A stretch of DNA of 64,000 bases, taken from the NCBI GenBank assembly GCA_900637705.1, contig LR134390.1:1488001-1552000 (forward strand). The letters run 5' to 3'. This document shows positions 8,835 through 41,117 of the stretch, in pieces. This DNA is from Fusobacterium varium. GTDB lineage: Bacteria; Fusobacteriota; Fusobacteriia; Fusobacteriales; Fusobacteriaceae. Each line of letters opens with the position of its first letter. Position 1 is the first letter of the stretch. The position numbers and the translations under genes are program-made. Below the pieces are notes generated by a model. It made no database searches. It was not told the DNA's origin and worked only from the letters and a program-made list of their open reading frames with translations.

Positions 8835-8870
8835 AAAAGAGCAGTCTAAATATTTGGACTACTCTTTTTT
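8835..8870 (+). terminator. Rho-independent terminator
   Basis: Inverted repeat AAAAGAGCAGTC / GACTACTCTTTT with one bulge, followed by T run. Confidence 0.75.
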
Positions 8871-8915
8871 ATAATCAATACTTTTTTATATTTTTTGTCC
8901 ACTATAAATTAACTA

Positions 8916-8944
8916 TTGTCAATTCTGATAAAAAGTTGTAATAT
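8916..8944 (+). promoter_or_regulatory. Promoter of the YoaK-like operon
   Basis: TTGTCA, 17-base spacer, TAATAT, about 40 bases before the ATG at 8984. Confidence 0.5.
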
Positions 8945-8983
8945 TAGAGTATTATAACGAACTTAATATTGGGGTTGATTTAA

Positions 8984-9667: not shown

Positions 9668-9678
9668 AAGGAATTAAA

Positions 9679-9873
9679 ATGGAAAAATACTTAATAACAA
9701 AGAAGGAAAAGGAAAATTATATAGAAAAATTTCCAGCATTAAACTGTGATGAATCTATCGGAATAGATTATGATGGATATATTTCTATTAAATGTAAAAA
9801 ACTTTATGGGACTTGTACTTACAGAATAAGCCAGAAAGAAGAATATAAAAATTGCAGACTTTTAACTAAGTAA
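9679..9873 (+). CDS. Small hypothetical protein (64 aa)
   Basis: Not recognised. It begins at the ATG at 9679 with AAAGGA upstream that overlaps the end of the YoaK-like gene; the longer frame from TTG 9664 is unlikely. Four cysteines (LNCDES, IKCKKLYGTC, KNCRLL) in a compact charged protein hint at metal binding or disulfides, but the spacing matches no family I know. Ten bases separate it from the fRMsr gene. Confidence 0.65.
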   Translation: MEKYLITKKEKENYIEKFPALNCDESIGIDYDGYISIKCKKLYGTCTYRISQKEEYKNCRLLTK

Positions 9874-9883
9874 TGGAGGTATT

Positions 9884-10390
9884 ATGGCTTTTAATGCAGA
9901 ACTTTACAAAGATTTAAACTTTAAAGAAAAGTATTCAGCTTTTTTAAATGAAATTGAAGAATATCTTTCTAAAGAGAGTGATCCAATTGCTAACCTTGCT
10001 AATGCTTCAGCTTTTATTTCAGCCTTTTTTGATGAAATAAATTGGTGTGGTTTCTATCTTCTAAAAAAGAATGAATTAGTTTTAGGTCCATTCTGTGGAA
10101 TGCCTGCTACTACAAGAATTCAAATAGGAAATGGTGTATGTGGCACTTCTGTAGAAAGAAAAGAAAAAATAGTGGTAGAAAATGTATGTGAATTTCCAGG
10201 TCATATCACTTGTGATGTAAGATCAAAATCTGAAGTTGTCATTCCACTTATTAAAGATGAAAAAATATATGGAGTGTTAGACATTGACAGTGCAGTTTAT
10301 TCAAGGTTCTCCTCAGAGGAAGTAGAAATTTTAGAAAAAGCTGTAGCTATTATTAATAAATATACTGATTATGAAAAAATAACTCATTAA
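9884..10390 (+). CDS. Free methionine-(R)-sulfoxide reductase (GAF domain)
   Basis: A single-GAF-domain enzyme of 168 residues that reduces free Met-R-sulfoxide in the cytoplasm. Family landmarks are NWCGFYLL, LGPFCGMPA, GNGVCGTSVE and FPGHITCDVRS followed by SEVVIPL. In characterised enzymes three cysteines take part. Here the second (GVCG) and the catalytic third (ITCD) are present, but the first (normally PAC) is PAT, with a cysteine displaced to FCGM instead; the disulfide relay may differ. Preceded by a GGAGG-type site (TAATGGAGG). Confidence 0.85.
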   Translation: MAFNAELYKDLNFKEKYSAFLNEIEEYLSKESDPIANLANASAFISAFFDEINWCGFYLLKKNELVLGPFCGMPATTRIQIGNGVCGTSVERKEKIVVENVCEFPGHITCDVRSKSEVVIPLIKDEKIYGVLDIDSAVYSRFSSEEVEILEKAVAIINKYTDYEKITH

Positions 10391-10508
10391 AAAAGAATTG
10401 CTGTAAATTTAAAATATTTTAGCTAATTTGAGCTAAGAATAGTTAGGGTAAATATTAAAATTAGTAGAAATCTATAAAATGATTTCTATTTTTTTATAGA
10501 AAAATAAA

Positions 10509-10560
10509 AGAGGCTGTAAAAACTAGTAAAATAAATTACTAATTACTACAGCCTTATTTT
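10509..10560. terminator. Bidirectional terminator with nested hairpin
   Basis: Outer stem AGGCTGTA / TACAGCCT encloses an inner stem AGTAA / TTACT. It lies between the convergent fRMsr and PBP genes. The inner AGTAAAATAAATTACT is repeated in the terminator at 17261-17313. Confidence 0.7.
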
Positions 10561-10563
10561 ATA

Positions 10564-12735
10564 TTAATTACCTAAAAGTCTTTTAAATAATGAGTCATTT
10601 GAAGTTGTATTTTCAGGAGCTATATCATTGTTAGTTTTTTCAATAACTGGATCATATCCCCCATTTCCTGCACTTTCATTTTCTTTTCTTGTATCTTTAA
10701 ATATTCCTGCTATTCCATTTGCATATTTCATTTCACTTTCCATCTGCAACTTTCCTTTTCTCACAAGAAATTCTCTTCCTGCTCCAGATATAAGTCCATT
10801 ATTTACTGTTAATGTCTGCAGATTAAAATCTCCATTTTTCAAATGATTTTCAAGGAAAGAAAAAGTACTTGGAACATACAGCCCTTTATCAATTAAAGTC
10901 TGATAATATTTTGCCCATAAAGGAGCCACTCCACTTCCTCCTGTAACATTTCCTTTTATAGCTCTGTTATCATCATAACCTATATATATAGTTGTAACAT
11001 AATCAGGTGTTATTCCAGCAAACCAAATAGTTCTGTTATCATTTACAGTTCCTGTTTTTCCTCCCTGCTCTATCCTCTTTTTATCTTTTGTGTATACAGA
11101 TGCTCTGTTAGAACTTCCATATTGCACTGAACTTTTCAGCATAAATGTTATTATACTTGTATTAATACTGTCAAATACTTTTTCTTTTTTAGGTGTATTC
11201 TGATATATAGGATTTCCATATCTATCTTCTACATCTATTACTGTTACAGGTTCTACTACATAACCTCCATTTGAAAATATTGAATAGTCTATAGCATGCT
11301 GTAATGGTGTATTTTCAAATGAACCTAAAGATGCAGTAAGATCATCTGGTATATTCAGACTTGGATCAAGTTTTGCAACAGTTTCTTTAAATGTTTTTGT
11401 TCCTATTTTTTGAAGCATTTTTATAGAAACTATATTTAATGATCTGTCCAAAGCATTAAGCAAAGTAACATTATTTGAATATCGGCTTCCAAAGTTCTTT
11501 GGTGTCCAGCTACCAAATGAAATAAATGAGTCTTCTACTACTGAATTCATTTCCATTCCATTTTCTACAGCTGTAAAATATAGGAAAGGCTTAAATGAAG
11601 AACCTAATTGTCTTTTTGCCATAGTTGCTCTATTAAAATTTCCTGATTTAAAATTTCTTCCACCAATTAAAGATATTACATATCCATTATTTGGATCTAT
11701 AGTTGCCATTCCACCTTGTAGCTCATCACTTTTCTTAAAGAATTCATAGTTTTCAAATACTTCTTTTGCAGTTTTCTGCATTTCCAAATCTAGAGTAGTA
11801 TGTACTTTTAATCCACCAGTATATACCATATTCTCTCCAAATTTATCTACTAAAAATTCTTCTACCATATTTGAAAAATCAGGATAATTGATTGTTACAT
11901 CACTTTTTTTATTATATATTATAGTTGTATTATTGTCCATTTTAAAATTTTCTGGCAGCTTATCTTCATTTATGAACTTATGGTTTTTTGCCTGTTCATA
12001 TTCTTCCTTTGTTATAAGTTTATCTTTATACATTTCAGATAAAATCAGATTAGCTCTTTTTAATGAAGCTTCTAGATTTCTTCTAGGATTATATTTTTCA
12101 GGTCTATTGGGTATACCTGCAAGAAGAGCTGACTCGGCTATATTTATTTCTGAAATATCTTTTCTGTACAGCTGTTTAGCTGCTGTCTTTATACCATAAG
12201 ACCCTGCTCCAAAATATATCTCATTCAGATATTTTTCAAATATCTCATCTTTTGTATATCTTCTTTCTATTTCAAATGTTATAATAGCCTCTTTTATTTT
12301 TCTTGAAAGTTTTCTTTCATGAGAAAGAAAGGCATTTTTTGCAAGCTGCTGAGTTATTGAACTTGCTCCTTGTACAGCACGACCACTACGAATATTAGCT
12401 ACAATAGCTCCTATTAATCTTTTTATATGTATTCCATGATGTGAATAAAATTGTTTATCTTCTATTGCTAAAAAAGCATTTCTACTGTATATAGGAACTT
12501 CTTTTAGCTTTACTGTATCCCTAGATTCTCTATATATGGTATCTATTACTTGACCATTCCTATCGTATAAGACAGTTGGCAAAGATGGGGCATAATCTTC
12601 TATCAAGGTTACTATATCAGGAAGTTCTTTGGAATATTTATTTATAACTCCTAAAACTACTCCCACAGATGCAATACTTCCAACAATAAATAAAACTATT
12701 ATTATTTTTATTATTCTTTTTACAGGTATTTTCAT
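10564..12735 (-). CDS. Class A penicillin-binding protein (PBP1A type)
   Basis: Bifunctional peptidoglycan synthase of 723 residues, anchored by one N-terminal membrane helix (residues ~7-30). The glycosyltransferase domain shows EDKQFYSHHGI, GASSITQQLAKN and the RRYTKDEIFEKYLNEIYFG block. The transpeptidase domain has the active-site SSFK (~376), RSLN (~431) and KTGT (~560) motifs. The C-terminal tail is Asn/Glu-rich and probably disordered. The start has AAGGAG at good spacing. The rlmN gene ends 27 bases upstream, so the two may be co-transcribed. Confidence 0.93.
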   Translation of the reverse strand: MKIPVKRIIKIIIVLFIVGSIASVGVVLGVINKYSKELPDIVTLIEDYAPSLPTVLYDRNGQVIDTIYRESRDTVKLKEVPIYSRNAFLAIEDKQFYSHHGIHIKRLIGAIVANIRSGRAVQGASSITQQLAKNAFLSHERKLSRKIKEAIITFEIERRYTKDEIFEKYLNEIYFGAGSYGIKTAAKQLYRKDISEINIAESALLAGIPNRPEKYNPRRNLEASLKRANLILSEMYKDKLITKEEYEQAKNHKFINEDKLPENFKMDNNTTIIYNKKSDVTINYPDFSNMVEEFLVDKFGENMVYTGGLKVHTTLDLEMQKTAKEVFENYEFFKKSDELQGGMATIDPNNGYVISLIGGRNFKSGNFNRATMAKRQLGSSFKPFLYFTAVENGMEMNSVVEDSFISFGSWTPKNFGSRYSNNVTLLNALDRSLNIVSIKMLQKIGTKTFKETVAKLDPSLNIPDDLTASLGSFENTPLQHAIDYSIFSNGGYVVEPVTVIDVEDRYGNPIYQNTPKKEKVFDSINTSIITFMLKSSVQYGSSNRASVYTKDKKRIEQGGKTGTVNDNRTIWFAGITPDYVTTIYIGYDDNRAIKGNVTGGSGVAPLWAKYYQTLIDKGLYVPSTFSFLENHLKNGDFNLQTLTVNNGLISGAGREFLVRKGKLQMESEMKYANGIAGIFKDTRKENESAGNGGYDPVIEKTNNDIAPENTTSNDSLFKRLLGN

Positions 12736-21334: not shown

Positions 21335-22279
21335 TTAGAATTTATATGTAAGCCCTAGAGAAACTACATAATTACTATTTTTAATACCTGATAAATTTTT
21401 AATACCATTGATTTTTTCTCCATCTTCAGTTATAAAATCAGTAGTTGATTTCTTTTTATGAAAATATTTAGAATACTCTACAGTTCCATTTATATCAATA
21501 GATGGAGTAATTGGATACTTAGCTACAAATTTAATCCCTAAATTTTTCATATTTTTATATTTTTCTTTATCTTCCATAGGTCCTCTTTCAAGATGTCTAT
21601 CTTTAGCCTTTGCTTTTCCATATAAACTACCTTTAACTTCAAAGCCTAAAACTAGTTTTTCATAAGTATATGAAACACCATATCCTATATATGGTGTAAA
21701 AAACTTTTGTGAATATTTTATACTTTTTTTCGAATAATCATCTTTCATGATATCAACAGAACCATCCAGTGAATAGTTATATTGATCTCCACCTTTAGCA
21801 TAAAATTTAAAATAATCATATTTAAATCCTAATATAGGTCCAGACTTTAAATTTTCACTATGATTAAACCAATATCTAATATTTGTATCAAACATAAAAA
21901 GATTATCTACATAGTTTTTATTGTCACTAAAGTTTGAAAGCTTCCCATAGTCATTCGGAGTAGCTCCATCTTCTGCATCATCAGACGAATACCAATCATA
22001 ATCTTTCATCCTTCCACTAGAATTAGAGCCAAAATTTTTCTTTAAACCAATTTGAAATTCCGTATTACCTTGTATATGTGTATAATCAACTATAAAAACT
22101 GGAATATTTTTAATTTTCCAATCTAAATAACTGACTTTTTCTCCTGTTTCTGGAACATAAACATATTCTCCTGCTTTACCATTAACAGTTCCCAAAGAAA
22201 AATTTAAAGTATTATTTGATTGTGCAAAAACTCCTGTTGAAATACAAGTAAATAAAATTAAAACTTCTTTTTTTAACAT
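21335..22279 (-). CDS. Omptin-family outer membrane protease
   Basis: A 314-residue beta-barrel protein: signal peptide to about residue 20 (STGVFAQ) and C-terminal aromatic LGLTYKF for barrel insertion. It aligns by eye to OmpT/Pla: KAGEYVYVPETGEKVSYLDW near the first strand, RYWF..., YFKFYAKGGDQYNYS (compare RYSFTARGGSYIYSS of OmpT) and FTPYIGYGVSYTYE. The omptin catalytic groups appear retained: an Asp pair in MKDYDWYSS (D93, D95) and the Asp-His pair in KAKDRHLE (D227, H229). It should cleave surface-accessible substrates, classically between basic residues. Monocistronic, GGAGG ribosome site, with three 21-bp-spaced repeats about 170-210 bases upstream. Confidence 0.82.
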   Translation of the reverse strand: MLKKEVLILFTCISTGVFAQSNNTLNFSLGTVNGKAGEYVYVPETGEKVSYLDWKIKNIPVFIVDYTHIQGNTEFQIGLKKNFGSNSSGRMKDYDWYSSDDAEDGATPNDYGKLSNFSDNKNYVDNLFMFDTNIRYWFNHSENLKSGPILGFKYDYFKFYAKGGDQYNYSLDGSVDIMKDDYSKKSIKYSQKFFTPYIGYGVSYTYEKLVLGFEVKGSLYGKAKAKDRHLERGPMEDKEKYKNMKNLGIKFVAKYPITPSIDINGTVEYSKYFHKKKSTTDFITEDGEKINGIKNLSGIKNSNYVVSLGLTYKF

Positions 22280-22447
22280 AATTACCTCCTAAAAATTTTA
22301 TAAACTATTTAAAAAGAAACTTTAATAAAGTCTATTTTTAATTACAAATTATAAGGTTTCTATTGAAGAAATCATTACTAAAATTACAAAAACAATTCTC
22401 TATACTTTTTGATTTTAACATATAAAAAATAATTAAATATAAAAATA

Positions 22448-22495
22448 CACATTCTTTTATGTTACATGCACAAAAATAATTTTTATATACACAAA
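22448..22495. promoter_or_regulatory. Three direct repeats with 21-bp period upstream of omptin gene
   Basis: CACA/CACAAA cores start at 22448, 22469 and 22490, exactly 21 bases apart, each preceded by TA or TG. Read on the gene's strand the unit is roughly TTGTGyATrTA. The same triple is found upstream of the autotransporter operon at 41070-41117. The remainder of 22280-22543 is AT-rich without genes. Confidence 0.6.
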
Positions 22496-26333: not shown

Positions 26334-26480
26334 GAGTTTATCCTCCTTTGATTTTATACTTAATTTGATTATCTAATTAAAATTATATATTAATAACTTT
26401 TAAAGTCAACTAAATAAAATTTTCTATCTTTTTATTTTTCTCAATAGCTTACTATAATACTAGTTTTTTTAATTGAAAAT

Positions 26481-26680
26481 AAATTTTATTTTTATATATT
26501 CTTTTTGATTCTTTTCTATACTTTTTTATTCATAATTTATAGTTATTTTCCACTTTACTAAAAAATGAGAATAGAAAAAATTTTATTTTTATATATTCTC
26601 TTTGACTCTTCTCTATACTTTTTTATTCATAATTTATAGTTATTTTCCATTTTACTAAAAAATGAGAATAGAAAAAATTT
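26481..26680. repeat. 97-bp tandem duplication
   Basis: Unit 26481-26577 is repeated at 26578-26674 with only about five mismatches, and the first dozen bases recur again at 26675. Each unit contains TTTATTCATAATTTATAG and an A-run/T-run pair (AAAAAATGAGAATAGAAAAAAT). It fills the gene-free 26334-26728 interval downstream of the LytTR gene. Confidence 0.85.
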
Positions 26681-26728: not shown

Positions 26729-27409
26729 TTATTGAGTATTTCTCAAATATAATTTATTTTTAGTTATAAAAGTATTCTCTTCTATTTCTTTTAGTTTTAT
26801 CTTGCTTATGTATAGTTCTGACAAATCCTTAAATAGTATCTTTTCTTCTTTGTAGTCGAGATATTTTATTAAATTAATATTTACTATAGTACCTCGTTCA
26901 ACTTTATAGAAATTAGTAAATTCAATTAAACTGGTTTCAACAGTAGAAAAATTAATTTTCAATGTAAAAATCTCTTTATTCAAAATATTAAATTGTACCC
27001 TTCTTGATACTCTACAGTAATTTATATATGTGACCTCTGAAAATTCAAGAATTCCCTTTTGATAAATATCATTTAAATAAAATTGAGTGTATTTGATCTG
27101 AGAATTTTTTAATCTATCTATACTTTTTTCAATTTCATAAATATCATGTCTTAAAATACAATCTGCAACCTGTTTATTTAAAAATAAAGTTCGCATTTTT
27201 TGAATATCATTTTTTCCAAGAACAACAATAATTGGAATTCCTTTTAAAAAAATATCTTTTATCTTCATATCTGCTTCTTCAGAAGCGATATCTATTATAA
27301 AAATTTGAAAATCTACATTACTCCTTTTATATTCTATGAATTCATAATCTAAAACTTCTCTTAAGAGAATCAGTAAATTTTCTTTAATATCTGTCCCTAT
27401 CTTAATCAT
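26729..27409 (-). CDS. LytTR-type DNA-binding response-regulator-like protein
   Basis: A 226-residue protein. The C-terminal ~100 residues fit the LytTR DNA-binding fold (FSEVTYINYCRVSRRVQF, then the characteristic FYKVERGTIVNINLIKYLDY, LYISKIKLKEIEE), as in AgrA or LytR. The N-terminal ~110 residues have a receiver-like strand pattern (FQIFIIDIASEEAD, IPIIVVLGKN), but the phospho-acceptor geometry is unclear, so phosphorylation is doubtful. It overlaps the upstream sensor gene by 8 bases. A likely binder of the 21-bp repeats upstream of the omptin and autotransporter genes. Confidence 0.75.
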   Translation of the reverse strand: MIKIGTDIKENLLILLREVLDYEFIEYKRSNVDFQIFIIDIASEEADMKIKDIFLKGIPIIVVLGKNDIQKMRTLFLNKQVADCILRHDIYEIEKSIDRLKNSQIKYTQFYLNDIYQKGILEFSEVTYINYCRVSRRVQFNILNKEIFTLKINFSTVETSLIEFTNFYKVERGTIVNINLIKYLDYKEEKILFKDLSELYISKIKLKEIEENTFITKNKLYLRNTQ

Positions 27410-28961
27410 AAAAACTTATCTCCTTATAAATAGAGTTGAGCCTAATATTGCTTGCTATACTTGAAATGTTTTCAGCCAATTTAGACAAATATCTCATTTC
27501 TTCTACATTTAGTGATGTCGAATTCTCTTCAATAAATATTATTCCAACACAAGGATTTTTATTAAAAGCTAGTCTTATTCCAAAAGAATACTTTGTTCCC
27601 TTTATATTATTTTTCTCTATGTATAAATCATCTTCAATAAAATTAAGATTATTTAAATACTTTTTAATAGCCTTATTATTAAAGAATAGTTTTACACTAA
27701 CAGATTTTATATTGATATTTTTTTGAATTTCTTTTTCTAATTCCTCTTTAAACTCAAGTTCGTTTTGGGCCAAACACAGTTTATTGTATGTTTTTTCAAC
27801 ATTTTTGTCTTTGAATACCATAATTTTTTTTAATGCTTCAGTATAAAAATCTAATATAAAAATAGTAAATAAAATTAAAAAGGGATCTTTTAAATCTTTA
27901 AAATAGAAAAGAACAATATATGAAATAGTAAATCCAAGTATATATCGTACTACTCTGTTTATATTTTGATTATAAATTCTTAAATTAATGAAGCAAATCC
28001 CCCAATATATACACATATATTCAATTAGTCTTATAAAATAATATAAATTTATGGCTTTCGGAAATAATAAATAAAAAAATTCTAAGAAGAAATATACAGC
28101 AATAATTGCAATCCAGTAAAATTTATTAGTAAATTCAAGAAATTTTTTGTTTATAACTAAATTAAATACTAACATAATCAAAATTATTCTTCTTAAATTA
28201 ATGAACTTGTAAAGTCTTTGCAGAAAAATTAAGATTATCTCATGATGTTGATATAAATGTGCATAAACCTTCGGGAAAATTAAATTAACACAAATTATTG
28301 CATAATGAAATAAGGTTAAAATAAGCAATATATAAATAAAAATTCTCATCTTTTTATATTTTTTATCCAACATATAATTTAAAATATATAATATAAGATT
28401 AGTTACCAAAATAATTGAAATTAAGAAATCTATAGTTACCATAAAATTATTTTCTATATCAGCTTTAACAGAAAAAAATAATTTCACCATTAAAAGAAAA
28501 AAAGAGAAATCAAGTGCTTTAACTTTTTTTATATGCTCTTTTATCTTTAGATAAATATTAAAATTTAGAATAATAAGTGCTAAAGTTACTATATTCAGAA
28601 CAATTTTTTGATTTCGTGAAAATATATCTCCTTGAAGATATATTGTCATTTTTTTCCAAGTATCATTTTTTACAAAAGGAATATATTTAACTTGATTGTC
28701 ATAATTGACTCTTAATAAATACTCTCCATTAGGAACATTTAAAAATAATTTACCATTTATAAAATTTTTCGTTTTAAAATTCAAATAAGTTTTATTTAAA
28801 GAAAGTATGGAATATTCACCAATATTTCTATCTAAAACTTCAGTATATTTTATTCGAGGAACAATATATATAAAATCATTTTCATTTCTAGAATCATATT
28901 TTAATATTAAAATCAAAAAAATACTTGTCATTATAATATATAATAATATTTTTTTATTCAT
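27402..28961 (-). CDS. Membrane sensor-like protein without kinase domain
   Basis: A 519-residue protein: N-terminal membrane helix, an extracytoplasmic beta-rich domain (~30-110), then seven to eight membrane helices (~120-375). A cytoplasmic C-terminus with a coiled-coil linker and a GAF-like region follows (VKLFFNN..., CVGIIFIEENS). I see no H-box or ATPase motifs of a histidine kinase. The arrangement resembles 7TM receptors with N-terminal carbohydrate-binding-like domains. Translational overlap with the LytTR gene suggests that it signals to that regulator. Confidence 0.65.
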   Translation of the reverse strand: MNKKILLYIIMTSIFLILILKYDSRNENDFIYIVPRIKYTEVLDRNIGEYSILSLNKTYLNFKTKNFINGKLFLNVPNGEYLLRVNYDNQVKYIPFVKNDTWKKMTIYLQGDIFSRNQKIVLNIVTLALIILNFNIYLKIKEHIKKVKALDFSFFLLMVKLFFSVKADIENNFMVTIDFLISIILVTNLILYILNYMLDKKYKKMRIFIYILLILTLFHYAIICVNLIFPKVYAHLYQHHEIILIFLQRLYKFINLRRIILIMLVFNLVINKKFLEFTNKFYWIAIIAVYFFLEFFYLLFPKAINLYYFIRLIEYMCIYWGICFINLRIYNQNINRVVRYILGFTISYIVLFYFKDLKDPFLILFTIFILDFYTEALKKIMVFKDKNVEKTYNKLCLAQNELEFKEELEKEIQKNINIKSVSVKLFFNNKAIKKYLNNLNFIEDDLYIEKNNIKGTKYSFGIRLAFNKNPCVGIIFIEENSTSLNVEEMRYLSKLAENISSIASNIRLNSIYKEISFYD

Positions 28962-29401: not shown

Positions 29402-29692
29402 CTATTCTTTTACTTTTGTATTAAAACTTCTTTTTAAATTTTTTCCTTGTTTAAATGTAATCTTCTTCTGTGCTGGTATTTTTTCTATCTTTTTCGTTCT
29501 TGGATTGCTGAAGATTCTCTCTTTTGTTTCTTTCACTTCAAATTTACCCCAGCCTTTAAATTCAAGTTTTTCATTTGTCTTTAAAACATCAACTATCCCT
29601 TCCCAGAAAATATCTACTTTATTTTTTGCTATTTTCATACTTCTTAATTCTCTTTTTTCTTTTAATTCTTTTATAAATTCTATTTCTTTCAT
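29402..29692 (-). CDS. HU/IHF-family DNA-binding protein
   Basis: A 96-residue histone-like protein. The beta-arm region is visible as FKGWGKFEVKETKER, IFSNPRTKKIEKIP and then KKITFKQGKNLK, the usual HU dimerisation and minor-groove arm signature. The N-terminus is somewhat longer and more charged than standard HU. It follows two small DNA-binding genes downstream of the giant autotransporter (5-base gap to the previous one), so it is likely co-transcribed with them rather than a housekeeping HU. Confidence 0.85.
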   Translation of the reverse strand: MKEIEFIKELKEKRELRSMKIAKNKVDIFWEGIVDVLKTNEKLEFKGWGKFEVKETKERIFSNPRTKKIEKIPAQKKITFKQGKNLKRSFNTKVKE

Positions 29693-30392: not shown

Positions 30393-33300
30393 TTAAAATT
30401 TATAATTGAATCTTACACCATATTTAATTGATGAATCTTTTTTATGTGACTCATCTGCTGCTTCCACTTCAAATGTTACTCCCATGTGGTTGGCTTTCTC
30501 TACTGTCAGTCCTACTTTTCCTGATAGCTTTCCTTCTTTTTCATCTGGAGTAATCAGACTGTAATATCCTTCTCCTCCATTTTTAAGTCTTGCTTTGTTT
30601 CCATCATAGTTATCTCCAAGTTCATATGCATATTTTACATCTGCTGTTACTTTTACAGATACATCATTTACTACATAGACTCTCTGCTGAGCTTTTACTC
30701 CTGCTGCTGCCTGTGCGCTTAAGTAATCATTATCTTTAATTTGCACTTCAAGTCCACCTTTGCTTCCAGCACTTTCTTTAAAATCATCTACTTTTCCATA
30801 TTCTAAATTTAAGTCAGCATATACATCTAATTGTCTAGATAAATCTGTATAGATAGCTTTTGTTAATCTGTTATCAAGTGCTACAGAGTAAGTATTATAC
30901 TCTCCCTTATTTTCAAATGTTTCTTGAAGATTAAGTTTTCTCTTAGCAATATGTCTGTTGTATCCTAGTTCTATTCTTGATAACCATGATACTTTATGCT
31001 CATCACTTAGATTTTTAACTCTGTGTGCTCCTACTCTCAATGAATATACATCTTCTTTTGAACCACCATCATCAAAGTCAAATTTAGATCCAGCAAATCC
31101 TATTGTATATCCATACTTGCTTCCATACTCTGTTCCCTCTTTTTCTTTCATATATAGAAGTCCCATTACTTTGTAGTCATAGTCATCTATTCCTAAAGTA
31201 GAGTCCTTGTAGTTTCCATCAGTATAAATAACACTGTATTTACTGCTGTCTTTAGTTAGGTTGTATGATGATTCAAGTTCATAGAAAGAATTATTAAATG
31301 CCTGATTAATATCCTGCATTCTTCCTTGAATAGTTGCATAGATATCTCCTCTGAATTCAGCTAATTTTTTTGAAGCTTCCCCTGTAAATTTATTTTTTTC
31401 CATTCCTTCTAAATAATTGTTTAATCCTTTTAAGATTTCAGCATCTCTTCCATTTCCACCACTATTTCTTAAAACATTATCAAGTCCCTTATCCAAAGTA
31501 TCAAATTGTTTCCCAAGAGTTAAATCTGCATATGGTCTTTTAGCTATTACTAAATCTCCAGCATTTGTCACTTTTGCTATAAATAGAGGTGATGTTACAG
31601 GAGTAAATTTTGTTCCTGTTATTGTTTTGATAGCTGTATTTACAAATCCTTTTATTTCATATGAAATACCATTTCCTGTAAGTGTAAAATTAGGTAGTAA
31701 TCTTATCTCTCCACTTACACTACGTGCATTAAACAGAGGTGTTTTAGTTGTTACATCTACATATGCTCCATTAACAATTACATTTCCAACAGTTGAGAGA
31801 GTTCCTCCAATAGCAGTATATTTATCATTAATCAGTATAGTTCCATCTGGCTGTATTACTACTGCTCCTACTCTTGCAGCTGTAACATTACTTGAGTCTT
31901 CCGTTTTTCCTTTTCCTGTTACTATTATATTTCCTGTATTAGTAACATTTCCTATACCTTCAATACCTGTTCCATTCTTTACATATATTGTCCCTTTATT
32001 AATTAGATTTGCTTGAGTACCTACCAGCATTCCTACACCTTCATTAACAGTTATTATTCCTCTGTTTTCTATTGTAGCTCCTGCATATGCTGCCATACCT
32101 ATTGTTCTATTTCCACTTGATACTAAAGTTCCACCTAAATTGATATTACCATTAGTTTCATTTATTGCTGTAGCTCCATCTCTTACCAGAACTCCTACTC
32201 CACCATTATCTATATTTATTATTCCTTTGTTTGTAAAACTAGTTCCTTCACCTTGTCCATATATTCCTACTGAATATTCATGGTTTACTGTTATTGTTCC
32301 AGAACTTGTTGCCATAGTTCCTCCTGACAAATACATTCCTATTGAATTCTCATGTTTTGTTTTGTCATTAGGTTCTCCATTTACATTTGTACTTCCTACA
32401 GTTATAGTTCCTGTATTTGTAACTCTATTTGCTCCTTCTGAATAAACACCTACAGCTGACATTCCTAATGTTATATTTGCTTTATTTTCAATTAATGCTG
32501 ATTCTCCTGCTGTTTGTTTTAAATAGATTCCATATCCACTATTTCCTACTGTCCAGTTTCCTGCTGATGTAGTTATAGTTCCTCTTCCATCTATCTTATA
32601 GATTCCAACTGATGCTCTCTCAGTTTTATTAGCTATTATCATGTTTCCTGTATATGTTATATCTCCATTACCTTCACTTGCAATACCTATACTTGTATCA
32701 GCACCAATTCCCATATTTCCTGTTACTACTGAGTCCATTCCTTTAGCATATACTCCTATTGCATCACCTGATTCTACTGTAATGTTTGACATATTAGCAG
32801 TTATTGTTCCTCCAGTTCCTTCACCATAGATTCCCACTCCCTCTGTTCCAACAGACATTCTCTCTGTTCCAGTTCCTTGGGTAATTATACTTCCAGGTGC
32901 CATTCCTTTTCCAAAAACACCTATACTGTAGTTTCCTGCTGAAAGATTTCCACTTCCTGTATATGAACCACCATTTAAAACAACTCCTATTGATGATATT
33001 GATTTATCTTCTGATATTGGAGAATCCCCAACTAAAAGATTTCCTCTAGTTGTAATTTGGCTCTCTTCTCCATATATACCTATATTTTTATTTCCTTTTA
33101 CTGAAATATCACCTGTTATTACCAAATTAGAGTTATCTTTTGCCATTACTCCTACTTGATTATTTTCAGTAGCACTTCCAATAGAGATTCCTCCTGCTGT
33201 ACTTCCTGCTGAGTTATTCAATACCATTCCAATAGTATAGTTTCCTGTTTGAGTTATTGTTGGTACTGCCCCAAGTGCTGCTACTCCATCATAATAAATT

Positions 33301-36300
33301 CCCATAGAATACTTAACTGATGTTCCACTTTGTACATTTATTGCAGTTGCTCCAAATGTTGGTGCTGCTCCTTTTACATAGGCTCCTATTCCACCATTTT
33401 GAACTGTTATAGCTGATGCTCCTACAGCATTGATAGTTCCACCATCTGCTACTATTCCTATTTGGTTATCAGCTGTAATATTTCCACTGAAATTTAATGT
33501 AGCACCTTTAGAATACATATATATTCCATCTGCTCCTACTGTAATATTAGCTGTATTCCCAACTGTTACTGTCGTTCCAGCTCCCTCAGCATATACTCCT
33601 ATTCCCTTATTTCCAGTTGTAATTGTTGCTGTTCCTGCCATAGTCATATCTGCCCCATTTTGAGCTACTATTCCTATTGCACTTTTTGATGCACTTCCTT
33701 CACCTGTTGTAATTGTTCCATCTATTGTGGAAACTGCTGTTCCTGTTGCAAATACTCCTACACTTTCATTTCCTAAGTTAACAGTTCCTACATTTATATT
33801 CCCTGATGTTCCCTCTAGAACTACTCCTGTATTTCTTGAACCTGTTGAAGTTATATTATTTGCAGTAAGTCCATTTGTTGCTCCTTTAATATATACTCCT
33901 ATTCCATCTGTTCCTGTCATATTCATATTATTATTTTGTACAGAAGTAAGCACACCATTGTGAGCTGAATATATTCCAATTCCATTACTTCCTACATTTA
34001 TATTTCCTGTATTTGCTACATCTGCTACATCTGTATAGATTCCTATTGATGGTGTATTTGTACTTGATTTTCCAGATGCATTGATTGTTCCTGTATTATT
34101 TATTGTTACTGGAAAGCCAGGATTTGTTCCTCCTTTTACTGCTGCCAGTCCTATTCCTCCAGATACAGCTGTTATTGTACCAGAGTTATTTACACTGTGT
34201 GCTGCTGTAAGTCCTGAATCATATAGCCCCATAAGTCCTGTTGCGCCTTCTCCTACGTTTAGAGTTCCTGAAGAGCTTAGGCTTCCATTTGTTGTTGCTG
34301 CTAGTGAACCTGACCCTATCACATTTATATTTGCTCCAAGATTCATTGTTCCCCCATTATTGAATACTCCTATTCCTCCACCTGCTAAGAAGTTGAATTT
34401 AAGGTTTCCTCCAGTTCCTAAATTAGCTATTCCACCTTTTATATATACTCCTGTTCCTCCATTTATATTAAGCACAGTTGTATTAGTTGTAAGAGTAGTT
34501 CCATTGTCTACATAGATACCTATTCCTCCTACTGTATTTATTGTTCCACTATGAGTAAGATTTGTTCCTGGTGTAGTTCCATCTAAATAAATTCCTACTC
34601 CATTTTGAGCATTTACAGTTACATTACTCATTGTATATGCTCCTAATGCACTCTTCAAAAGAATTCCTATTGAAGATTTTAATGGAGTTCCTGTTTTTGT
34701 ACCTGTTGCTATATTTGCTCCATTAAAAGTTACACTATTATCTAGAACATATACTCCTACTGAGTCCTGTCCTGTTGTTATATTTCCTGATATTACTGAA
34801 GTTCCTTTAGCTACAACTCCTACTGCTCCTCCAGAATTTGATGTATCAACTGTAAAATCTATCTTGGAATTTTCTCCAAATACTCCAACTCCTCCTGAAG
34901 CTATGTTTAAAGTTCCTGTTTTTATTTTATTTGCTTCAGTATTTTTAAGATACATTCCTACTTTATTTGAATTAATTGTTCCTCCAGTTCCATCAAAACT
35001 GTTAGTAGAGCCATCTACATATACTCCTGTTCCTGTTGTAGTAGTTATTGTTCCTGCATTTTTACCTGAGTTTGTTCCAGCTCCTCCTATATACATTCCA
35101 AGATTAGCACCTGCTGTGATTGTTCCCCCAGCTGCATTTTCCACTGCTGCAGTTTTTCCAGCTTTAGCTCCAGCAACCATTCCTACAACTGATTTATTTA
35201 ATCCACTTGGTGCTCCATTCATCAGTATAGTTCCTGAGTTTTCTCCTTTACCTTCTTCTGTATATATTCCTATGCTGTCACTATCATTCATTGTAATAGT
35301 TCCTGTTGAAGTTAACTGAGAACCTTCTCCTACATATGAACCAATATTTTCTGATTTTCCTGCTGTCGATGTAATATTAGAATTATTTACTAAAGTTATC
35401 CCATCTGCTGCATATATTCCAATGCTTTCACTACCAGTCAGAGAAATATCTGAGCTATTTGTCACTGTTCCAGAAGCAGTTCCCTTGCTGTAATATATTC
35501 CTATATTTTTAGTTCCTGCTGCTGTATTATTTACAGTTATTGTTCCTCCAGTTGCAGAAGCTCCATCAGCTAAATACATTCCTGTTCCTCTTCCTGTATC
35601 AGTATTAAGAGTCAGTCCTCCTGCTCCTACAGTCACAGCTCCTCCACTTCCATATATTCCTACTGCATTTCCTCTTGCTGTTACACTTCCTGTTATTTCA
35701 GAAGCCCCATCTATAAATATACCTGTAGTCTTATTTCCAGTTACTGTTACATTCACATCTAGATTATTATTTCCTTTAGAATAAAGTCCTACAGCTTCAT
35801 TTACAACATTCAGCTTTCCTGTTGTATTACTTATAAATCTGCTTCCTGTTCCAGCATTTTCAAGATAGATTCCTACTGTTTTATTTCCTGTTGATGAAAT
35901 AACTTCTCCATCTATAGTTATTGTTTTATTTGCTTTTATTCCAATAGTTGCATCTTTTCCATATACAAATATATTTTTATTTTCATTTGCATTTTTTAGT
36001 GTTACATTTTCTACAAAATCCACTAAAGCTTTTTCAGCAAATATCCCTATACTTGATTTTCCACCAAATCTAATATTACTTCTATCATCAAGTTCAGTTT
36101 TAGCTCCTCCCTTGATATATATTCCTGTTGTACCATCAGCATTAAGATTTATAGTTCCCTTGTTTATAACTTGACTATTTATTCCTTCAGCATACATTCC
36201 TATTTGAGAGGCTTCATTTACATTAATAACTCCAGCTGCATTATTAACAATATGAGCTGTTTTAGTGTACATACCTACAGCTCCAGTTTTACCTGCACCT

Positions 36301-39300
36301 AAAGTAATATTTCCCTCATTATATCCAGAATTAGTTTCTGTCCCTTTAACATATATTCCGATTCCAGCAGTTCCAATATTTAAAGCTCCTTTTGAAGTGA
36401 TATTCATATTTTCACTATATACTGCTGTTCCATTATCTAAATCTGATATATCAATATTCACTTTTATTTCTTTAGAAGTGTTTCCTTCTCCTTTGTAGAA
36501 AATTACAGTTTTTCCAAGAGTTCCTATCCCATTTGAAGTAACCCTTACATCAGTTGCAGTAAGGTCTGATGTTCCATCTAACATTACTCCAATTCCATCT
36601 GCTCCAAGATTAAGAGTTCCAAGAGCTTTTATTTCAGAATTATTTTTAGCATATATTGCAATTCCATTATTTCCTACTGAAATAATTCCTAAATTTGATA
36701 TTGTAGTTTTATCTCCATATATACCAATAGCTGCATTTGTAGCTGTTGAACTTCCTACATCAATTATTCCATTAATATCATTACTAACTTTAGAATCTGC
36801 TTTGGTTCCAGCTACATTGTTGTTATATGCATATATACCTATAGTTCCAGTTCCACCTAAACCTATATATTTATTATTAACAATATTTATTTTTCCCTGC
36901 TCAGCAAAAATTCCTCCTGCTCCAAATTCATTTACAATAGGAGTTTCTGCTGGTTGTTCTCTATATGCCATTCCTAAAATACCTATAGCCTGATTTCCTT
37001 TTACTTCTATATCCCCTGCATTTGACACTGTACTTCCATTTACTGCATATACTCCTATTGCTTTATCATTAACAGTATTAGCACCTTTTTCAACTTCTAC
37101 TTTTGCACCTGCTGCAATATCTATTTTACCAAAGTTCATATAAAGACCAATTGCTCCTGCACCTGCATCTGTTCTGTCTGCTATTACTTTAGATCCTGCT
37201 GCAAGATTTATTTGAGCATCTGTTGCACTTCCTGCTGCCTTACTTGAATTCATTTCAAGTCCTACTACCTGTCCCTTAAAATATGTTGATGCATCTGAAC
37301 TGTTGATTTCTGATTTTACTTCTACTCCATTAAGAACATTGAGTTTAAGTCTTTGACCTAAAAATCTTCTGTAATAGAAAAATCCTGGTGAAGTAGTGGA
37401 AGTATCTGTTTTGTCCATGTTAGCATTGATATTTAAAATTCCTCCATCTACAGCTGCTATTTTATACTTATCAAATACTTGAGTTCCATTTGTTCCAGCA
37501 ACTATATTTACTCCACCTAATTTATTTTCTATATCTGTTTTAAGTGTTCCTATATTTAAAGTTCCTATATTCTTAAGATTAACTCCTACTGCATCATTAG
37601 ACATTACTACAATTTTAGCTCCAGTCAAAGTTATCGGATTAGAAGAAGGAGTACTTAAATCCAATTCAAGACCTGTAGCTTTTCCTCTCAGAATTATTTC
37701 TCCATTTGATAAATTAACAGTTCCTCCATTTGAAGTATAAACAGCATATCCATCTCCACTATAATCAACTATACCTCCTGACAAGTCTATATTTGAATTA
37801 CTTCCTGTTGCTACTGCCCCTACTGTTCCATCTTTTACTTTAACATAAGTGTTTTTAACACTGATTTTTCCACCATCACTTGCATAAATTCCTAAACCTG
37901 ATGTACTTCCATCAGCTTGTATTTTTCCTTCTACATATATATTGGCTGGAGTAGTTGGCTCAGAAATATTTCCATTAGCATCTGGCTGAGAAAGTGTCAA
38001 AGAAGTTCTGTCTGTTATAATACTTCCTTGATTTGTAGCAAATAGTCCTGTACTATTTCCTGATAAATTCAAACTCAATTTATCTTTTTCTATATTTATA
38101 ACTGTTCCACTATTCTTAGCATATATAGCAACTGTATCTTCAATTTTTTTAGTATCCTTTCCTGCTATTACATCGCCTTTCATAGTTATTGTTTTTCCAT
38201 TTTGTGCAATTGCTATCTGATTGTTTTTTCCACCTTCTATTAAAATATCTCCATCAAACTTTACATCTCCACCTTGAGCAATTATTCCAATATTTCCTTC
38301 TCCACCAGATATTTTTACACTGCTCTTTTCTGCTGGATTTCCATATGGTTTTAAAATTTCAATTGTTCCATTTTTCCCAAATATTCCTATTCCACCATAA
38401 GAATGCTCTCCTATTTCTATTTGAGCTGCTGTTTTTGTTGTACTTGAGTTATCCATCAGTATTCCAATAGCTTGCTCTACTAGATTAGGGTCATTTGCTC
38501 TTGCAGAACCATCAGGATTAGTAAAAATACTATTTATAGAGTTTCCTTTTTCTATAGCTTGTTTTTTACTTCCAATATTGAACTTCACTATATTTTTTCA
38601 TTTGTTATATTTGTATTTTGTGCAACCAGACCAACACTTTTATCTCCTAATAATTCAATTGGTTTTTTTATATATGCTGTATGTCCAATATGAAAAGGAC
38701 TATTGTCTGACATATACAGAGCTATTGCCTCTGCTCCTCTTATTTCAGCGATTCCCTCATTTACAAATGCAGCTCTGTTATAAGGTAAATTTCTATAAAC
38801 CCATTGCATCAATGAAGCTCCTATTCCATCTACATATATTTTTCCAGTTGGTCCATTTGAATAGATATATGCTTTTGCTTCTTGTGTATCTGGAGAATGC
38901 ATATATACAGCTGATTTATCTCCATTGACAATAATTGTTCCTTCATTATCTAAATAATTAGTTCTAAGACCTCCATTTGTATGTGATGTTGTGAAAAAAT
39001 ATGCTGAGTTTGTTCCATTTATATCTACTTTCCCTTTATTGACAAACAAAAGCTCAGTATTATTATTACCTTTAATTCCACTATATGTCTGATACTCTCT
39101 CAATCTGTCACGTGTTTCTGAAGTTATAAGCCCTTCTGCTACTCTATTGTCTAAATTACCATTTACTATTCCTTCAGTTTCAAGATCAATAAGTTTAGCA
39201 TGATTTGAATTAAAAACTATTTTTGTATTTTCTCCATAATATGAATATGGTACATTTAATAAAGTATGAAAAAAGTTTTTATTTACAGTATATGTTCCAT

Positions 39301-40360
39301 TTGCTGGTTTATTACCTTGAGGATTTGTTCCAGCAAATGCTTCAGCATCATATCCTGTTACTCCCACACTATAATTTCCTGAGCTTCCATTTATAATATA
39401 CTCTCCAGATTTTAAACTTATTTGAGAGATTACCCCATCATTTCCGTCCCACCAATAGTATCTTACTGTTGGGTTTGCTCCACTTCCAGTTATTGATGGA
39501 GATGAAACATTCACTGGTACTACTACTGGTAGTGAAGGTGCTGTTGGAAGTTTTATTATTGTTGGGTTATACCCCTCAGGCAAAGTTGGATTAGTTACTT
39601 TTACATTCTTTTCAGATGGAACAGTTGGTGTTTTTATAACTGGAGTTGCTACTGTTATTTTTTCTACTGGATTTGGTGTTGACAGTTCTACTGATACTTC
39701 ATTTGGTGCTAATGGAGTTGAAATAACTGGTGCTATCACTGTTGGTACTGAAGCTACCACTGGATTTATTGTTTTAGGTAATGTCCCTAAAATAACTATT
39801 GGTGCTGATGCTGTTACTGAAACATTGGGATTTACTTTTGGTAAATCTGGCTGTATTAATTTTATATTAGCTCCAATTTCTACTGTTTCTCTGAATACAG
39901 TGTCATCAACACTAACTCCATTTCCCTCTTGTATCTTAACAATTCCTGAATCTTTCCCTAGTTTATAATATTTATCTACGGCATCTATTGTTTCTTTAAA
40001 TTCTTTATCTGTTACATCTTTCATCTTCCCATTATCTAAATATTGATAACTGAAAAAAACTTGTGTGCTTGGAGCTAAGGGTTTTGAATAAAAATCTCCT
40101 TTTCTTATAAGCTCTACAAAATCTGAATTATATTTTTTTATTAACTTTTCATTTTCTATTATCTTCTTTTTTATTTCTTCTCTTTCTATTTGTATCTTTT
40201 TCAACAATTCATTTTTATTTTCTTGTATTTCTTCAGTTGTTATTCCTGTGGCTAATGAAATTTCACCAGTTATCATAAATACTACTAGCAATGATAAAGA
40301 ATAACCAATTTTTCTCTTCAAAAATCTCTTCAAAGCTTTTTCAACATTATTTTTTTTCAT
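30393..40360 (-). CDS. Giant type Va autotransporter adhesin (one frameshift at 38597)
   Basis: About 3,322 residues. The N-terminus (MKKNNVEKALKRFLKRKIGY...) is an extended fusobacterial autotransporter signal peptide. A coiled-coil and a Pro/Val/Thr-rich segment (~185-270) follow, then a very long passenger of short repeats built around GIGIY/GVGIY turns, typical of a right-handed beta-helix. The last ~280 residues form the outer-membrane barrel, ending FNYKF. The reading frame is interrupted near 38597 where GAAAAAATATAG needs one more A; with it the gene is exactly 3,323 codons, so the two visible frames (590 and 2,731 residues) are one protein. GGGAG precedes the ATG. Confidence 0.88.
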
Positions 40361-40377: not shown

Positions 40378-40971
40378 TTAATTTCCTGCTTTTACTTTTT
40401 CTTCCATTCTATCTAGTCTACTCAAGTATTCTTTAAGTTTTTCATTTTCTAATAAAAGTATTTCAAGTTCATTATTATTAGATTTAAATTCATCATAAAC
40501 TTTATCAAACTTCTGTCCTAAAAATACATCTCTGTTTGCATCTTCTATTCCTAAAGATTTTTCAAGTTCCATAATTTCCTTTTCTTCTGCCTTTAAAAAT
40601 GCCATTCTTTCCCTTCCTATTTCAAAGGCCTTTTCTGCAGCTACCATTCTTGCTTCAGGGTTATTTTCACTTCTAAAAACTTTTTCCTCTAGAGATTCAT
40701 TCATATCTCTTCTAATCTCTTCAAGTATTTTCTTCCCCTTTTTTTCTTCTGCCTTCTCAGCACTTATTTTTGCTTTCTCCTCTGCTGCTTTGATTTTTTC
40801 TGCTTCTCTAGCAGCTCTGGCTTTTTCTTTTTCTTCCAATTGAACTTCTTTTCTTATTTGTTTAAGAACTCTCATTCCCTCTTTTTCACTTATCTCTTGT
40901 GAGTAAGTAGAAACATAGAAAACAGAGAAACTAAAAAAAAGAAATATAAATAATAATTTTTTTCGTTTCAT
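40378..40971 (-). CDS. Secreted coiled-coil protein upstream of autotransporter 1
   Basis: A 197-residue protein: signal peptide (MKRKKLLFIFLFFSFSVFYV...TYS) and then almost continuous charged coiled coil rich in KAxEEKA repeats. It ends 17 bases before the autotransporter start, so it is the first gene of that operon. It could be a FadA-like filament or a periplasmic helper, but it lacks the FYKxQYQ motif of FadA. AGGAG ribosome site. Confidence 0.75.
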   Translation of the reverse strand: MKRKKLLFIFLFFSFSVFYVSTYSQEISEKEGMRVLKQIRKEVQLEEKEKARAAREAEKIKAAEEKAKISAEKAEEKKGKKILEEIRRDMNESLEEKVFRSENNPEARMVAAEKAFEIGRERMAFLKAEEKEIMELEKSLGIEDANRDVFLGQKFDKVYDEFKSNNNELEILLLENEKLKEYLSRLDRMEEKVKAGN

Positions 40972-41069
40972 AAATTATCTCTCCTTAATTGTTTTTATGT
41001 AATCTTTAAATAGAACTTTTTATCTATATAAATACTATAATTTATTTTTTCTTTTATTTTTTGTATATA

Positions 41070-41117
41070 CACAAATTCTATTATTGTATGCACAAAATAT
41101 AATATTACATACACAAT
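41070..41117. promoter_or_regulatory. Three direct repeats with 21-bp period upstream of autotransporter operon
   Basis: CACAA cores at 41070, 41091 and 41112, exactly 21 bases apart, with TATA/TATG/CATA flanks. They lie 100-145 bases upstream of the secreted coiled-coil gene, in the divergent region 40972-41395. Same motif and spacing as 22448-22495. Confidence 0.6.

What the first reader, a model, noticed from the sequence alone, without database searches (positions are those of the whole stretch)
26729..28961. LytTR regulator paired with a multi-helix membrane sensor that has no kinase domain
The 519-residue partner has an N-terminal extracytoplasmic domain, seven to eight helices and a GAF-like tail but no H-box or ATP-binding motifs, and the regulator's receiver-like domain has unclear phosphoacceptor residues. 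The pair overlaps by 8 bases. Signalling may occur by direct contact or sequestration instead of phosphotransfer.
Basis: partly seen in the sequence, partly recalled or inferred. Interest (0 to 1): 0.55.

Follow-up and report, generated by a model that had tools for sequence, protein, structure and literature searches.

The report
Kinase-less membrane switch for surface genes
Next to the gene for a giant surface adhesin, this Fusobacterium carries a two-gene membrane-to-DNA switch that looks like a bacterial two-component system whose kinase is missing, and repeated DNA sites that would fit its DNA-binding half sit in front of the adhesin operon and of a surface protease gene.

Summary
The 519-aa partner (27402-28961) is a predicted ten-helix membrane protein: an outer beta-sandwich (CnaB/transthyretin-like), nine further helices, and a GAF domain where the chain ends. 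No kinase was found in 28 aligned family members. The 226-aa regulator models as a receiver domain plus LytTR. Asp40, at the phosphoacceptor position, is invariant (29/29), but the window protein lacks the acid pair, the Thr/Ser and the Lys. In 39 of 41 pairs the genes overlap or touch, sensor first. The new finding is an operator-like element: TTTGTGTA half-sites every 21 bp, the geometry of LytTR sites. Exact triples occur eight times in 98 Fusobacteriota genomes: six upstream of outer-membrane or adhesin genes, two directly upstream of distant versions of the pair. In the window, copies precede the RadD-like adhesin operon (41068-41117) and, with one mismatch, an omptin protease gene (22446-22495). 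Best reading: the sensor gates a LytTR regulator by direct contact, without phosphotransfer, to control surface proteins. It works like the LytTR Regulatory Systems of Streptococcus but differs in gene order, sensor type and retained receiver. Contact, its sign and DNA binding are inferred, not shown.

The parts
27402..28961 (-). Membrane sensor, 519 aa; no Pfam/NCBIfam family; no kinase domain
   Evidence: homologues in 24 of 98 Fusobacteriota genomes
28629..28880 (-). Sensor residues 28-111: extracytoplasmic beta-sandwich, CnaB/transthyretin-like
   Evidence: model pLDDT 72 overall; Z 8.5 (UafA), 8.4 (BcpA), 7.6 (5-hydroxyisourate hydrolase); Z near 8 is moderate
27819..28616 (-). Sensor residues 116-381: nine predicted transmembrane helices (plus anchor helix 3-26)
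   Evidence: positive-inside pattern
27405..27809 (-). Sensor residues 385-519: cytoplasmic GAF domain ending in a long helix; contains K414, invariant in 28 of 28 rows
26729..27409 (-). LytTR regulator, 226 aa, starts 8 bases inside the sensor gene
27095..27409 (-). Regulator residues 1-105: degenerate receiver domain; D40 codon at 27290-27292
   Evidence: fold; residue counts; codon; 0 of 29 match Pfam Response_reg
26732..27094 (-). Regulator residues 106-226: LytTR DNA-binding domain and tail
   Evidence: Pfam; AgrA LytTR Z 13.1, 2.7 A over 100 residues
41068..41117 (.). Operator-like triple repeat (TACACAAA / TGCACAAA / TACACAAT, period 21 bp), 111 bp (first doublet) upstream of the adhesin operon
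22446..22495 (.). Operator-like triple repeat (TACACATT / TGCACAAA / TACACAAA, period 21 bp), about 200 bp upstream of the omptin gene; one mismatch to the triple pattern
40378..40971 (-). 197-aa exported protein (by its N-terminus), first gene of the adhesin operon (predicted target)
   Evidence: ORF; no Pfam hit; operator upstream
38588..40360 (-). N-terminal part of a RadD-like autotransporter adhesin (predicted target); the frame ends here
   Evidence: NCBIfam NF049908 profile positions 4-609, 248 bits, below the curated cut-off of 3500
30393..38588 (-). Remainder of the RadD-like autotransporter, 2731 aa
   Evidence: NCBIfam NF049908 from profile position 617, 1255 bits, below the curated cut-off of 3500
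21335..22279 (-). Omptin-family outer-membrane protease (predicted target)
   Evidence: Pfam PF01278 E 3.4e-47

Best explanation
The pair is a kinase-independent membrane-to-DNA switch. The sensor reads an envelope signal through its periplasmic CnaB-like domain and helix bundle and passes it to its cytoplasmic GAF domain. The GAF domain holds or releases the LytTR regulator by direct contact with the regulator's degenerate receiver domain. No phosphate is transferred. The regulator binds TTTGTGTA half-sites spaced 21 bp apart and so sets expression of outer-membrane proteins: here a RadD-like adhesin operon and an omptin, in relatives subtilase autotransporters and small barrels, and in several relatives the pair's own operon. 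Shown by computation: no kinase found, receiver and LytTR folds (models), conserved pairing, the repeats and their placement. Inferred: direct contact, that this regulator is the one that binds the repeats, and the signal. I lean slightly (about 60:40) to the sensor being an inhibitor, as in the Streptococcus LytTR Regulatory Systems.
For: Kinase absence: 0 of 28 sensors, with LytS kinases found in the same genome as positive control. Degraded pocket. Sensor directly upstream of the regulator in 41 of 41 loci, 39 of 41 gaps between -35 and +1 bases. Regulator model matches full-length ComE best and receivers at Z 14.7. Operator: period-21 TTGTG doublets 14 (13 intergenic) in 857 kb (51 loci), against 14 in all (1 intergenic) for 15 other periods. 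Exact triples: 8 in 98 genomes (reversed control 2); six are 95-144 bp upstream of surface-protein genes and two lie between a distant sensor gene and a divergent gene. The triple pattern was drawn after seeing the RadD-like, omptin and 227-aa barrel promoters; the hits that it newly brought in are the 1102-aa autotransporter of G001 and the two distant pairs of G071 and G075. Exact doublets: 7 of 7 in G000, G001, G007, G021 and G053 are intergenic, upstream of surface genes (one of them, G053, was used to find the motif); 5 of 5 in other genomes are inside ORFs. Pair promoters of seven Cetobacterium loci carry TGT-type triples at the same period (pattern drawn).
Against: The window pair's own upstream region has no recognisable repeat. 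D40 is invariant and the second acidic residue is kept in 24 of 29 relatives, so phosphorylation is not excluded for the family. No complex was modelled. Nothing shows that this regulator, rather than one of the three other LytTR loci of the genome (one is the broken copy of this pair) or another protein, binds the repeats. Sites of three genomes (G000, G001, G007) are partly orthologous. With one mismatch allowed, triple hits are not specific: of 11 one-mismatch hits, 8 lie inside ORFs, and the reversed pattern gave 11 hits against 17 for the pattern. A consensus-free test on 21 pair promoters gives only a modest peak at period 21 (mean z 0.97, next 0.33). Fusobacterium nucleatum radD is reported under a different regulator (PMC12186487).
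Confidence: 0.58

Rival explanations
1. A worn two-component system: the regulator is still phosphorylated on D40 by another kinase or by acetyl phosphate, and the kinase-less sensor acts as an accessory or as a phosphatase-like brake.
For: D40 is invariant in 29 of 29 and a basic residue at 87 in 29 of 29; the second acid is kept in 24 of 29. Two LytS-type kinases exist in the genome. The fold is a receiver.
Against: In the window protein both acid-pair positions (I8, K9) and the Thr/Ser position (L64) are replaced. Both LytS kinases have their own receiver gene beside them. 0 of 29 regulators match Pfam Response_reg.
Confidence: 0.22
2. The sensor gates the regulator, but the 21-bp repeats belong to a different regulator that controls surface genes; the shared neighbourhood is a surface-protein island.
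For: The window pair lacks the repeat at its own promoter; other LytTR genes exist; pairs often lie among surface genes anyway.
Against: Two exact triples sit between a distant pair and a divergent gene in G071 and G075, genomes without a sensor match. Repeats of the same period precede Cetobacterium pairs that are next to ABC-transporter-like genes, not surface genes. The 21-bp period fits LytTR direct repeats as reported for LRS (9-bp repeats, mostly 12 bp apart; PMC6193735, passages).
Confidence: 0.2
3. The membrane protein is a transporter or enzyme unrelated to the regulator and only shares an operon with it.
For: No domain of the helical part is known.
Against: Pairing is kept in 41 loci of very different neighbourhoods with overlapping or touching genes in 39; an outer domain and a GAF domain at the two ends are typical of receptors.
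Confidence: 0.05
4. It is a true member of the LytTR Regulatory Systems (LRS).
For: LytTR regulator plus kinase-less membrane protein, and direct repeats upstream of the operon in relatives (PMC6193735, abstract, passages and section 8 read).
Against: LRS regulators lack a receiver domain and its Asp, the regulator gene comes first, and four of the five S. mutans LRS membrane proteins carry DUF3021 or DUF2154 (PMC6193735). None of these holds here.
Confidence: 0.15

Closest known systems
LytTR Regulatory Systems (HdrRM, BrsRM of Streptococcus mutans; PMC6193735)
   Same: LytTR regulator and a membrane partner without kinase, in one operon; direct repeats with about 21-bp period upstream of the operon in several relatives
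   Different: Gene order reversed (sensor first); regulator has a receiver fold with an invariant Asp; sensor is a ten-helix protein with outer beta-sandwich and GAF; predicted targets are outer-membrane proteins
LytS/LytT-type two-component systems (one intact copy in this genome, L122 3098-5485)
   Same: Membrane part followed by GAF (for LytS the GAF is recalled, not scanned); receiver plus LytTR regulator; adjacent genes, sensor first
   Different: No H-box or ATPase domain after the GAF; receiver pocket degraded; no similarity of the membrane part was found by Pfam
7TMR-DISM receptors
   Same: Outer beta-sandwich, helix bundle, cytoplasmic signalling domain (layout recalled, not from a call)
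   Different: No Pfam match; nine helices, not seven, follow the outer domain; output is a separate LytTR protein
ComE/AgrA family regulators
   Same: Same two-domain fold (top structural match is full-length ComE; AgrA LytTR Z 13.1)
   Different: 14-18% identity; receiver pocket residues missing; no kinase partner
CarSR control of radD in Fusobacterium nucleatum (PMC12186487, passages seen)
   Same: A signalling system acting at the rad operon promoter
   Different: [quoted passage not shown] 'LytTR' and 'direct repeat' do not occur in that paper

Membership tests
LytTR Regulatory System (LRS) | LytTR-family regulator | tested here: met
   28 of 29 rows
LytTR Regulatory System (LRS) | Membrane partner without kinase or other enzymatic domain | tested here: met
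   0 of 28
LytTR Regulatory System (LRS) | Regulator lacks receiver domain and conserved Asp | tested here: not met
   receiver fold Z 14.7; D40 in 29 of 29
LytTR Regulatory System (LRS) | Regulator gene upstream of membrane-protein gene | tested here: not met
   sensor first in 41 of 41
LytTR Regulatory System (LRS) | Direct repeats upstream of the operon promoter (autoregulation) | tested here: inconclusive
   present in several relatives; not found upstream of the window pair
LytTR Regulatory System (LRS) | Membrane protein inhibits the regulator | not testable with these tools
   needs reporter or deletion experiment
LytTR Regulatory System (LRS) | DUF3021 or DUF2154 membrane protein (four of the five S. 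mutans LRS) | tested here: not met
   no such Pfam hit in 28 at E<=1
LytS/LytT two-component system | Histidine kinase domains (H-box, ATPase) in the sensor | tested here: not met
   control kinases found
LytS/LytT two-component system | Receiver acid pair, Asp, Thr/Ser and Lys | tested here: not met
   only the Asp is kept in the window protein: I8/K9, D40, L64, R87
LytS/LytT two-component system | LytTR output domain | tested here: met
7TMR-DISM receptor | 7TMR-DISM membrane or outer-domain Pfam match | tested here: not met
   0 of 28
7TMR-DISM receptor | Seven helices after the outer domain | tested here: not met
   nine predicted
GAF domain | GAF fold at the sensor's C-terminus | tested here: met
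   Z 12.8, 3.4 A, 133 aligned; no Pfam GAF hit

The most novel reading that the evidence does not exclude
A distinct class of bacterial signalling system, found here mostly in Fusobacteriaceae, made by stripping the kinase from a LytS/LytT-like pair. The sensor's GAF helix (invariant K414) would grip the receiver's invariant Asp (D40) as a reversible latch instead of phosphorylating it. The freed regulator would read tandem 21-bp repeats to switch adhesins, proteases and other surface proteins on or off together.
Probability: 0.4. Interest if true: 0.82.

Novelty: new variant of a known kind. Interest (0 to 1): 0.68.

Why it matters
A named regulator, a named DNA site and named target genes would make the control of giant adhesins and an outer-membrane protease in this branch of Fusobacterium directly testable. 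The pair also looks like an intermediate between phosphorelay systems and kinase-free LytTR systems, so it bears on how signalling can outlive the loss of its kinase. The window sensor has no Pfam or NCBIfam match, none of the 28 aligned has a credible Pfam match, and the sensor is annotated 'hypothetical protein' in a named Cetobacterium somerae record.

Tried and rejected
Rejected: a hidden or frameshifted kinase (no match in 28 sensors; 26 of 28 end 9-13 residues after the last GAF-helix Arg, and the two longer tails have no kinase match). 7TMR-DISM membership (no Pfam match, nine helices). Filing under LRS (three reported features fail). Pfam's HGTP_anticodon hit on the regulator (E 0.027, below cut-off) and the other sub-threshold hits taken as chance. 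Foldseek on the whole sensor gave only domain-level matches; no fold was found for the helical part, which was not searched alone. The longer tails of the distant L103, L108 and L111 sensors looked to me like a kinase dimerisation hairpin without its His; neither a PDB sequence search of the L111 tail nor Pfam on three of these tails and L104's supported that, so I do not claim it.

Led nowhere: two genome-contig scans gave three loci in all. A consensus-free period test on 240 bp of 21 pair promoters gave a weak peak only; it did not reach most of the Cetobacterium repeats, which begin 220-286 bp upstream. A first period scan of 15 pair promoters was mostly non-significant one by one. One-mismatch triple hits are largely chance. 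In one search MAFFT placed the control LytT out of register in the first strand, so I took the acid-pair register from the structural alignment ranges, not from that alignment.

Limits: structure models rest on four-sequence alignments (pLDDT 72 and 76). The motif was found by eye in the intergenic regions and then tested; the spacer counts include the loci that gave it. Neighbour labels for loci not scanned with Pfam come from blastp or, where I say so, from reading the sequence. The 41 pairs include contig-edge pieces, the broken copy L045, and seven pairs (L108-L112 without L110 and L109, and L114-L117, counted one by one) whose sensors are related to the window's only distantly or not detectably.
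Full report
What is there. The sensor gene (27402-28961, minus strand) encodes 519 aa and the regulator gene (26729-27409) 226 aa; they overlap by 8 bases. The regulator has a LytTR domain (PF04397, E 1.7e-6). The sensor has no Pfam or NCBIfam match. The genome is a 3.3 Mb Fusobacteriota genome. A genome placed in the same genus (G010) has a 77,968-base contig with the identical 517-aa sensor of the named Fusobacterium mortiferum An814 contig of 77,968 bases.

Family. With a ten-row profile, sensor homologues occur in 24 of 98 Fusobacteriota genomes; regulator homologues, including other LytTR proteins, in 41 of 98. I aligned 28 sensors (five of them partial: L045, L050, L093, L098, L102; the distant L103 and L104 included) and 29 regulators; a few near-duplicate rows (such as L042, L049 and L087 among the sensors) were left out. 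Counting more distant pairs, 41 pair loci were examined: the sensor gene precedes the regulator gene in all 41, and 39 of 41 gaps lie between -35 and +1 bases (the exceptions are L111, +15, and L117, +133). A second kinase-less pair with no detectable sensor similarity to the first exists in the same genome (L117); its sensor occurs in 7 of 98 genomes. Three regulators without a sensor gene beside them were seen: L052, L106 and L107, all near ExbB/ExbD/TonB-like genes (those labels are read from the sequence, not from a family scan).

No kinase. None of the 28 sensors matches a kinase model at E<=1, nor do ten sensors scanned, eight of them further ones. The same genome's two LytS-type kinases are found with PF06580, each beside its own receiver protein; one of them, L122, is a textbook LytS/LytT pair. 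No column of the cytoplasmic part of the sensor holds His in five or more rows.

Structure. The sensor model (four-sequence alignment, pLDDT 72, pTM 0.57) has an anchor helix, a beta domain (28-111) that matches CnaB and transthyretin-like folds (Z 8.5, 2.2 A over 77 residues with UafA, a moderate score), nine further helices, and a GAF domain (385-519; Z 12.8, 3.4 A over 133 with PDE6; Z 12.4, 3.3 A over 122 with KdpD). Net charge of the loops alternates as the positive-inside rule wants for ten crossings, with 230-253 outside the membrane. The regulator model (pLDDT 76) is a receiver fold (residues 1-105, Z 14.7, 1.8 A over 104 with PmrA) plus LytTR (Z 13.1 with AgrA); the best full-length match is ComE.

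The pocket. D40 ends strand 3, where the phosphoacceptor sits, and is the only invariant residue of the receiver part in 29 rows. The acid pair falls on I8 and K9 in this protein, the Thr/Ser on L64 and the Lys on R87. Across the 29, the first acid is kept in 0, the second in 24, Thr/Ser in 0, a basic residue at 87 in 29. Among 12 further regulators aligned, D40 is kept in 6 and replaced in 6 (K, S, P, E, E, E), including both sensor-less L106 and L107; L052, also without a sensor gene, keeps it. So the pocket is degraded, most of all in the window protein, but not erased in the family. In the sensor, K414 on the first GAF helix is the one residue invariant in all 28 rows. A D40-K414 latch is a guess.

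Neighbours. By Pfam or blastp to Pfam-tested neighbours, 14 of 41 pairs have an outer-membrane or surface gene within about 700 bp: subtilase autotransporters (L047-L050, L088, L089, L092), OMP_b-brl barrels (L043, L044), TraT (L086, L087, L090, L091), MipA (L108). Three more (window, L041, L042) follow a RadD-like gene within 2.3 kb. DUF535 (VirK/YbjX family) genes lie within about 3.2 kb of eight pairs (L043-L045, L088, L089, L104, L109, L110), four of which are not among the 17 above. Eight Cetobacterium-type pairs instead precede an ABC-transporter binding protein (label read from the sequence). The remaining twelve pairs have none of these at such distances. In enterobacteria VirK/YbjX genes are reported as PhoP-linked (PMC13109725, PMC5775216; search listing only), which hints at envelope stress but proves nothing here.

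The repeats. Intergenic regions between sensors and divergent surface genes showed half-sites of the form TAC-A-C-A/G-AA, equal to TTTGTGTA on the other strand, at an exact 21-bp period. With a looser half-site, the 13-base spacer gave 13 hits in 857 kb of pair loci, against 0 to 7 (mean 2.5) for 20 other spacers. For TTGTG doublets, period 21 gave 14 hits (13 intergenic); the 15 other periods from 15 to 30 gave 14 together (1 intergenic). Genome-wide in G000, at most one mismatch to the doublet, there are five hits: three at the two window sites, one at the broken paralogous pair and one before a 227-aa barrel-like gene (its Pfam barrel scores are just below cut-off). Over nine genomes one search gave 20 such hits and its reversed control one; of the 13 one-mismatch hits, 7 lie inside long ORFs.

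Phylum-wide tests. Exact doublets: 12 in 98 genomes. The seven in G000, G001, G007, G021 and G053, all carriers of the pair, are intergenic and 64-202 bp from a surface gene or its operon: the RadD-like operon three times, omptin, a YadA-head protein, a TonB-dependent receptor, and a subtilase autotransporter opposite the G053 pair. The five in other genomes (G032, G080, G085, G090, G093; G090 has a distant pair) are all inside ORFs. Reversed-pattern control: 0. Nineteen of the 24 carriers have no exact doublet. Exact triples: eight in 98 genomes (control 2). Six are 95-144 bp upstream of surface genes or operons, in the same orientation toward the gene (RadD-like operon in G000, G001, G007; 227-aa barrel in G000, G001; 1102-aa autotransporter in G001). 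In G001 and G007 a very large ORF with a RadD-like start follows the first gene directly. Two, in G071 and G075, lie between a distant sensor gene and a divergent 187/186-aa gene; these two were not used to draw any pattern. Seven Cetobacterium loci have TGT-type triples at the same period upstream of the sensor; L101 has four copies. The window pair itself has none.

Mechanism. A kinase-less receptor tied by position, not by chain, to a LytTR regulator with a worn receiver suggests contact signalling. The Streptococcus LRS paper (abstract, passages and section 8 read) reports kinase-free pairs with 9-bp repeats mostly 12 bp apart, that is a 21-bp period. The layout differs as tabulated. In G009 the sensor gene is broken while the regulator, the autotransporter and a looser form of the repeat remain (L050), which fits an inhibitor slightly better than an activator, but one case decides nothing.

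Novelty. Literature searches for LytTR with Fusobacterium, membrane inhibitor, 7TMR-DISM, pseudo-receiver, GAF plus atypical response regulator, and Fusobacteria plus receiver domain listed no paper that, by title and start of abstract, is on this system; only open-licence papers are held. One listed paper (PMC13210348, passages) names a LytTR family protein of F. nucleatum only as a gene raised by probiotic supernatant. F. nucleatum radD is reported under CarSR control through a different motif (PMC12186487, passages).

Noticed in passing
window 30393-40360: The RadD-like adhesin is split over two ORFs in different frames that meet at 38588; broken gene, phase variation or assembly error cannot be told apart here.
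   Followed up: partly
L045 (G000:C1:3149001-3169000), 8858-11035: A second, broken copy of the same pair in this genome: the sensor is in pieces and the regulator is shortened.
   Followed up: partly
L117 7841-10079 (G000, about 2.52 Mb): Another kinase-less membrane protein with a LytTR regulator in the same genome; the sensor occurs in 7 of 98 Fusobacteriota genomes, and no 21-bp repeat stood out upstream.
   Followed up: partly
L052 9573-10238; L106 7722-8405; L107 7870-8553: Regulators of this family without a sensor gene, near TonB/ExbB/ExbD-like genes; two of the three have lost the invariant Asp.
   Followed up: partly
L103 11399-11620; L108 8696-8929; L111 7868-8089: Distant sensors carry about 45-65 extra residues after the GAF, which might be a remnant of a kinase dimerisation hairpin; two searches did not support it.
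   Followed up: partly
window 26478-26671: A 97-bp stretch just downstream of the regulator is present twice in tandem, 95% identical.
   Followed up: partly
window 29402-29692: A 96-aa ORF between the adhesin and the sensor resembles HU/IHF proteins (recalled, not tested); two more small ORFs lie beside it.
   Followed up: no
NZ_CP092520.1 527207-534751 (L172): Cetobacterium somerae carries the pair behind traT on a 705-kb replicon recorded as a plasmid; the sensor is annotated as hypothetical protein.
   Followed up: yes
window 56328-63971: A second very large ORF (2547 aa), possibly another autotransporter; not scanned.
   Followed up: no
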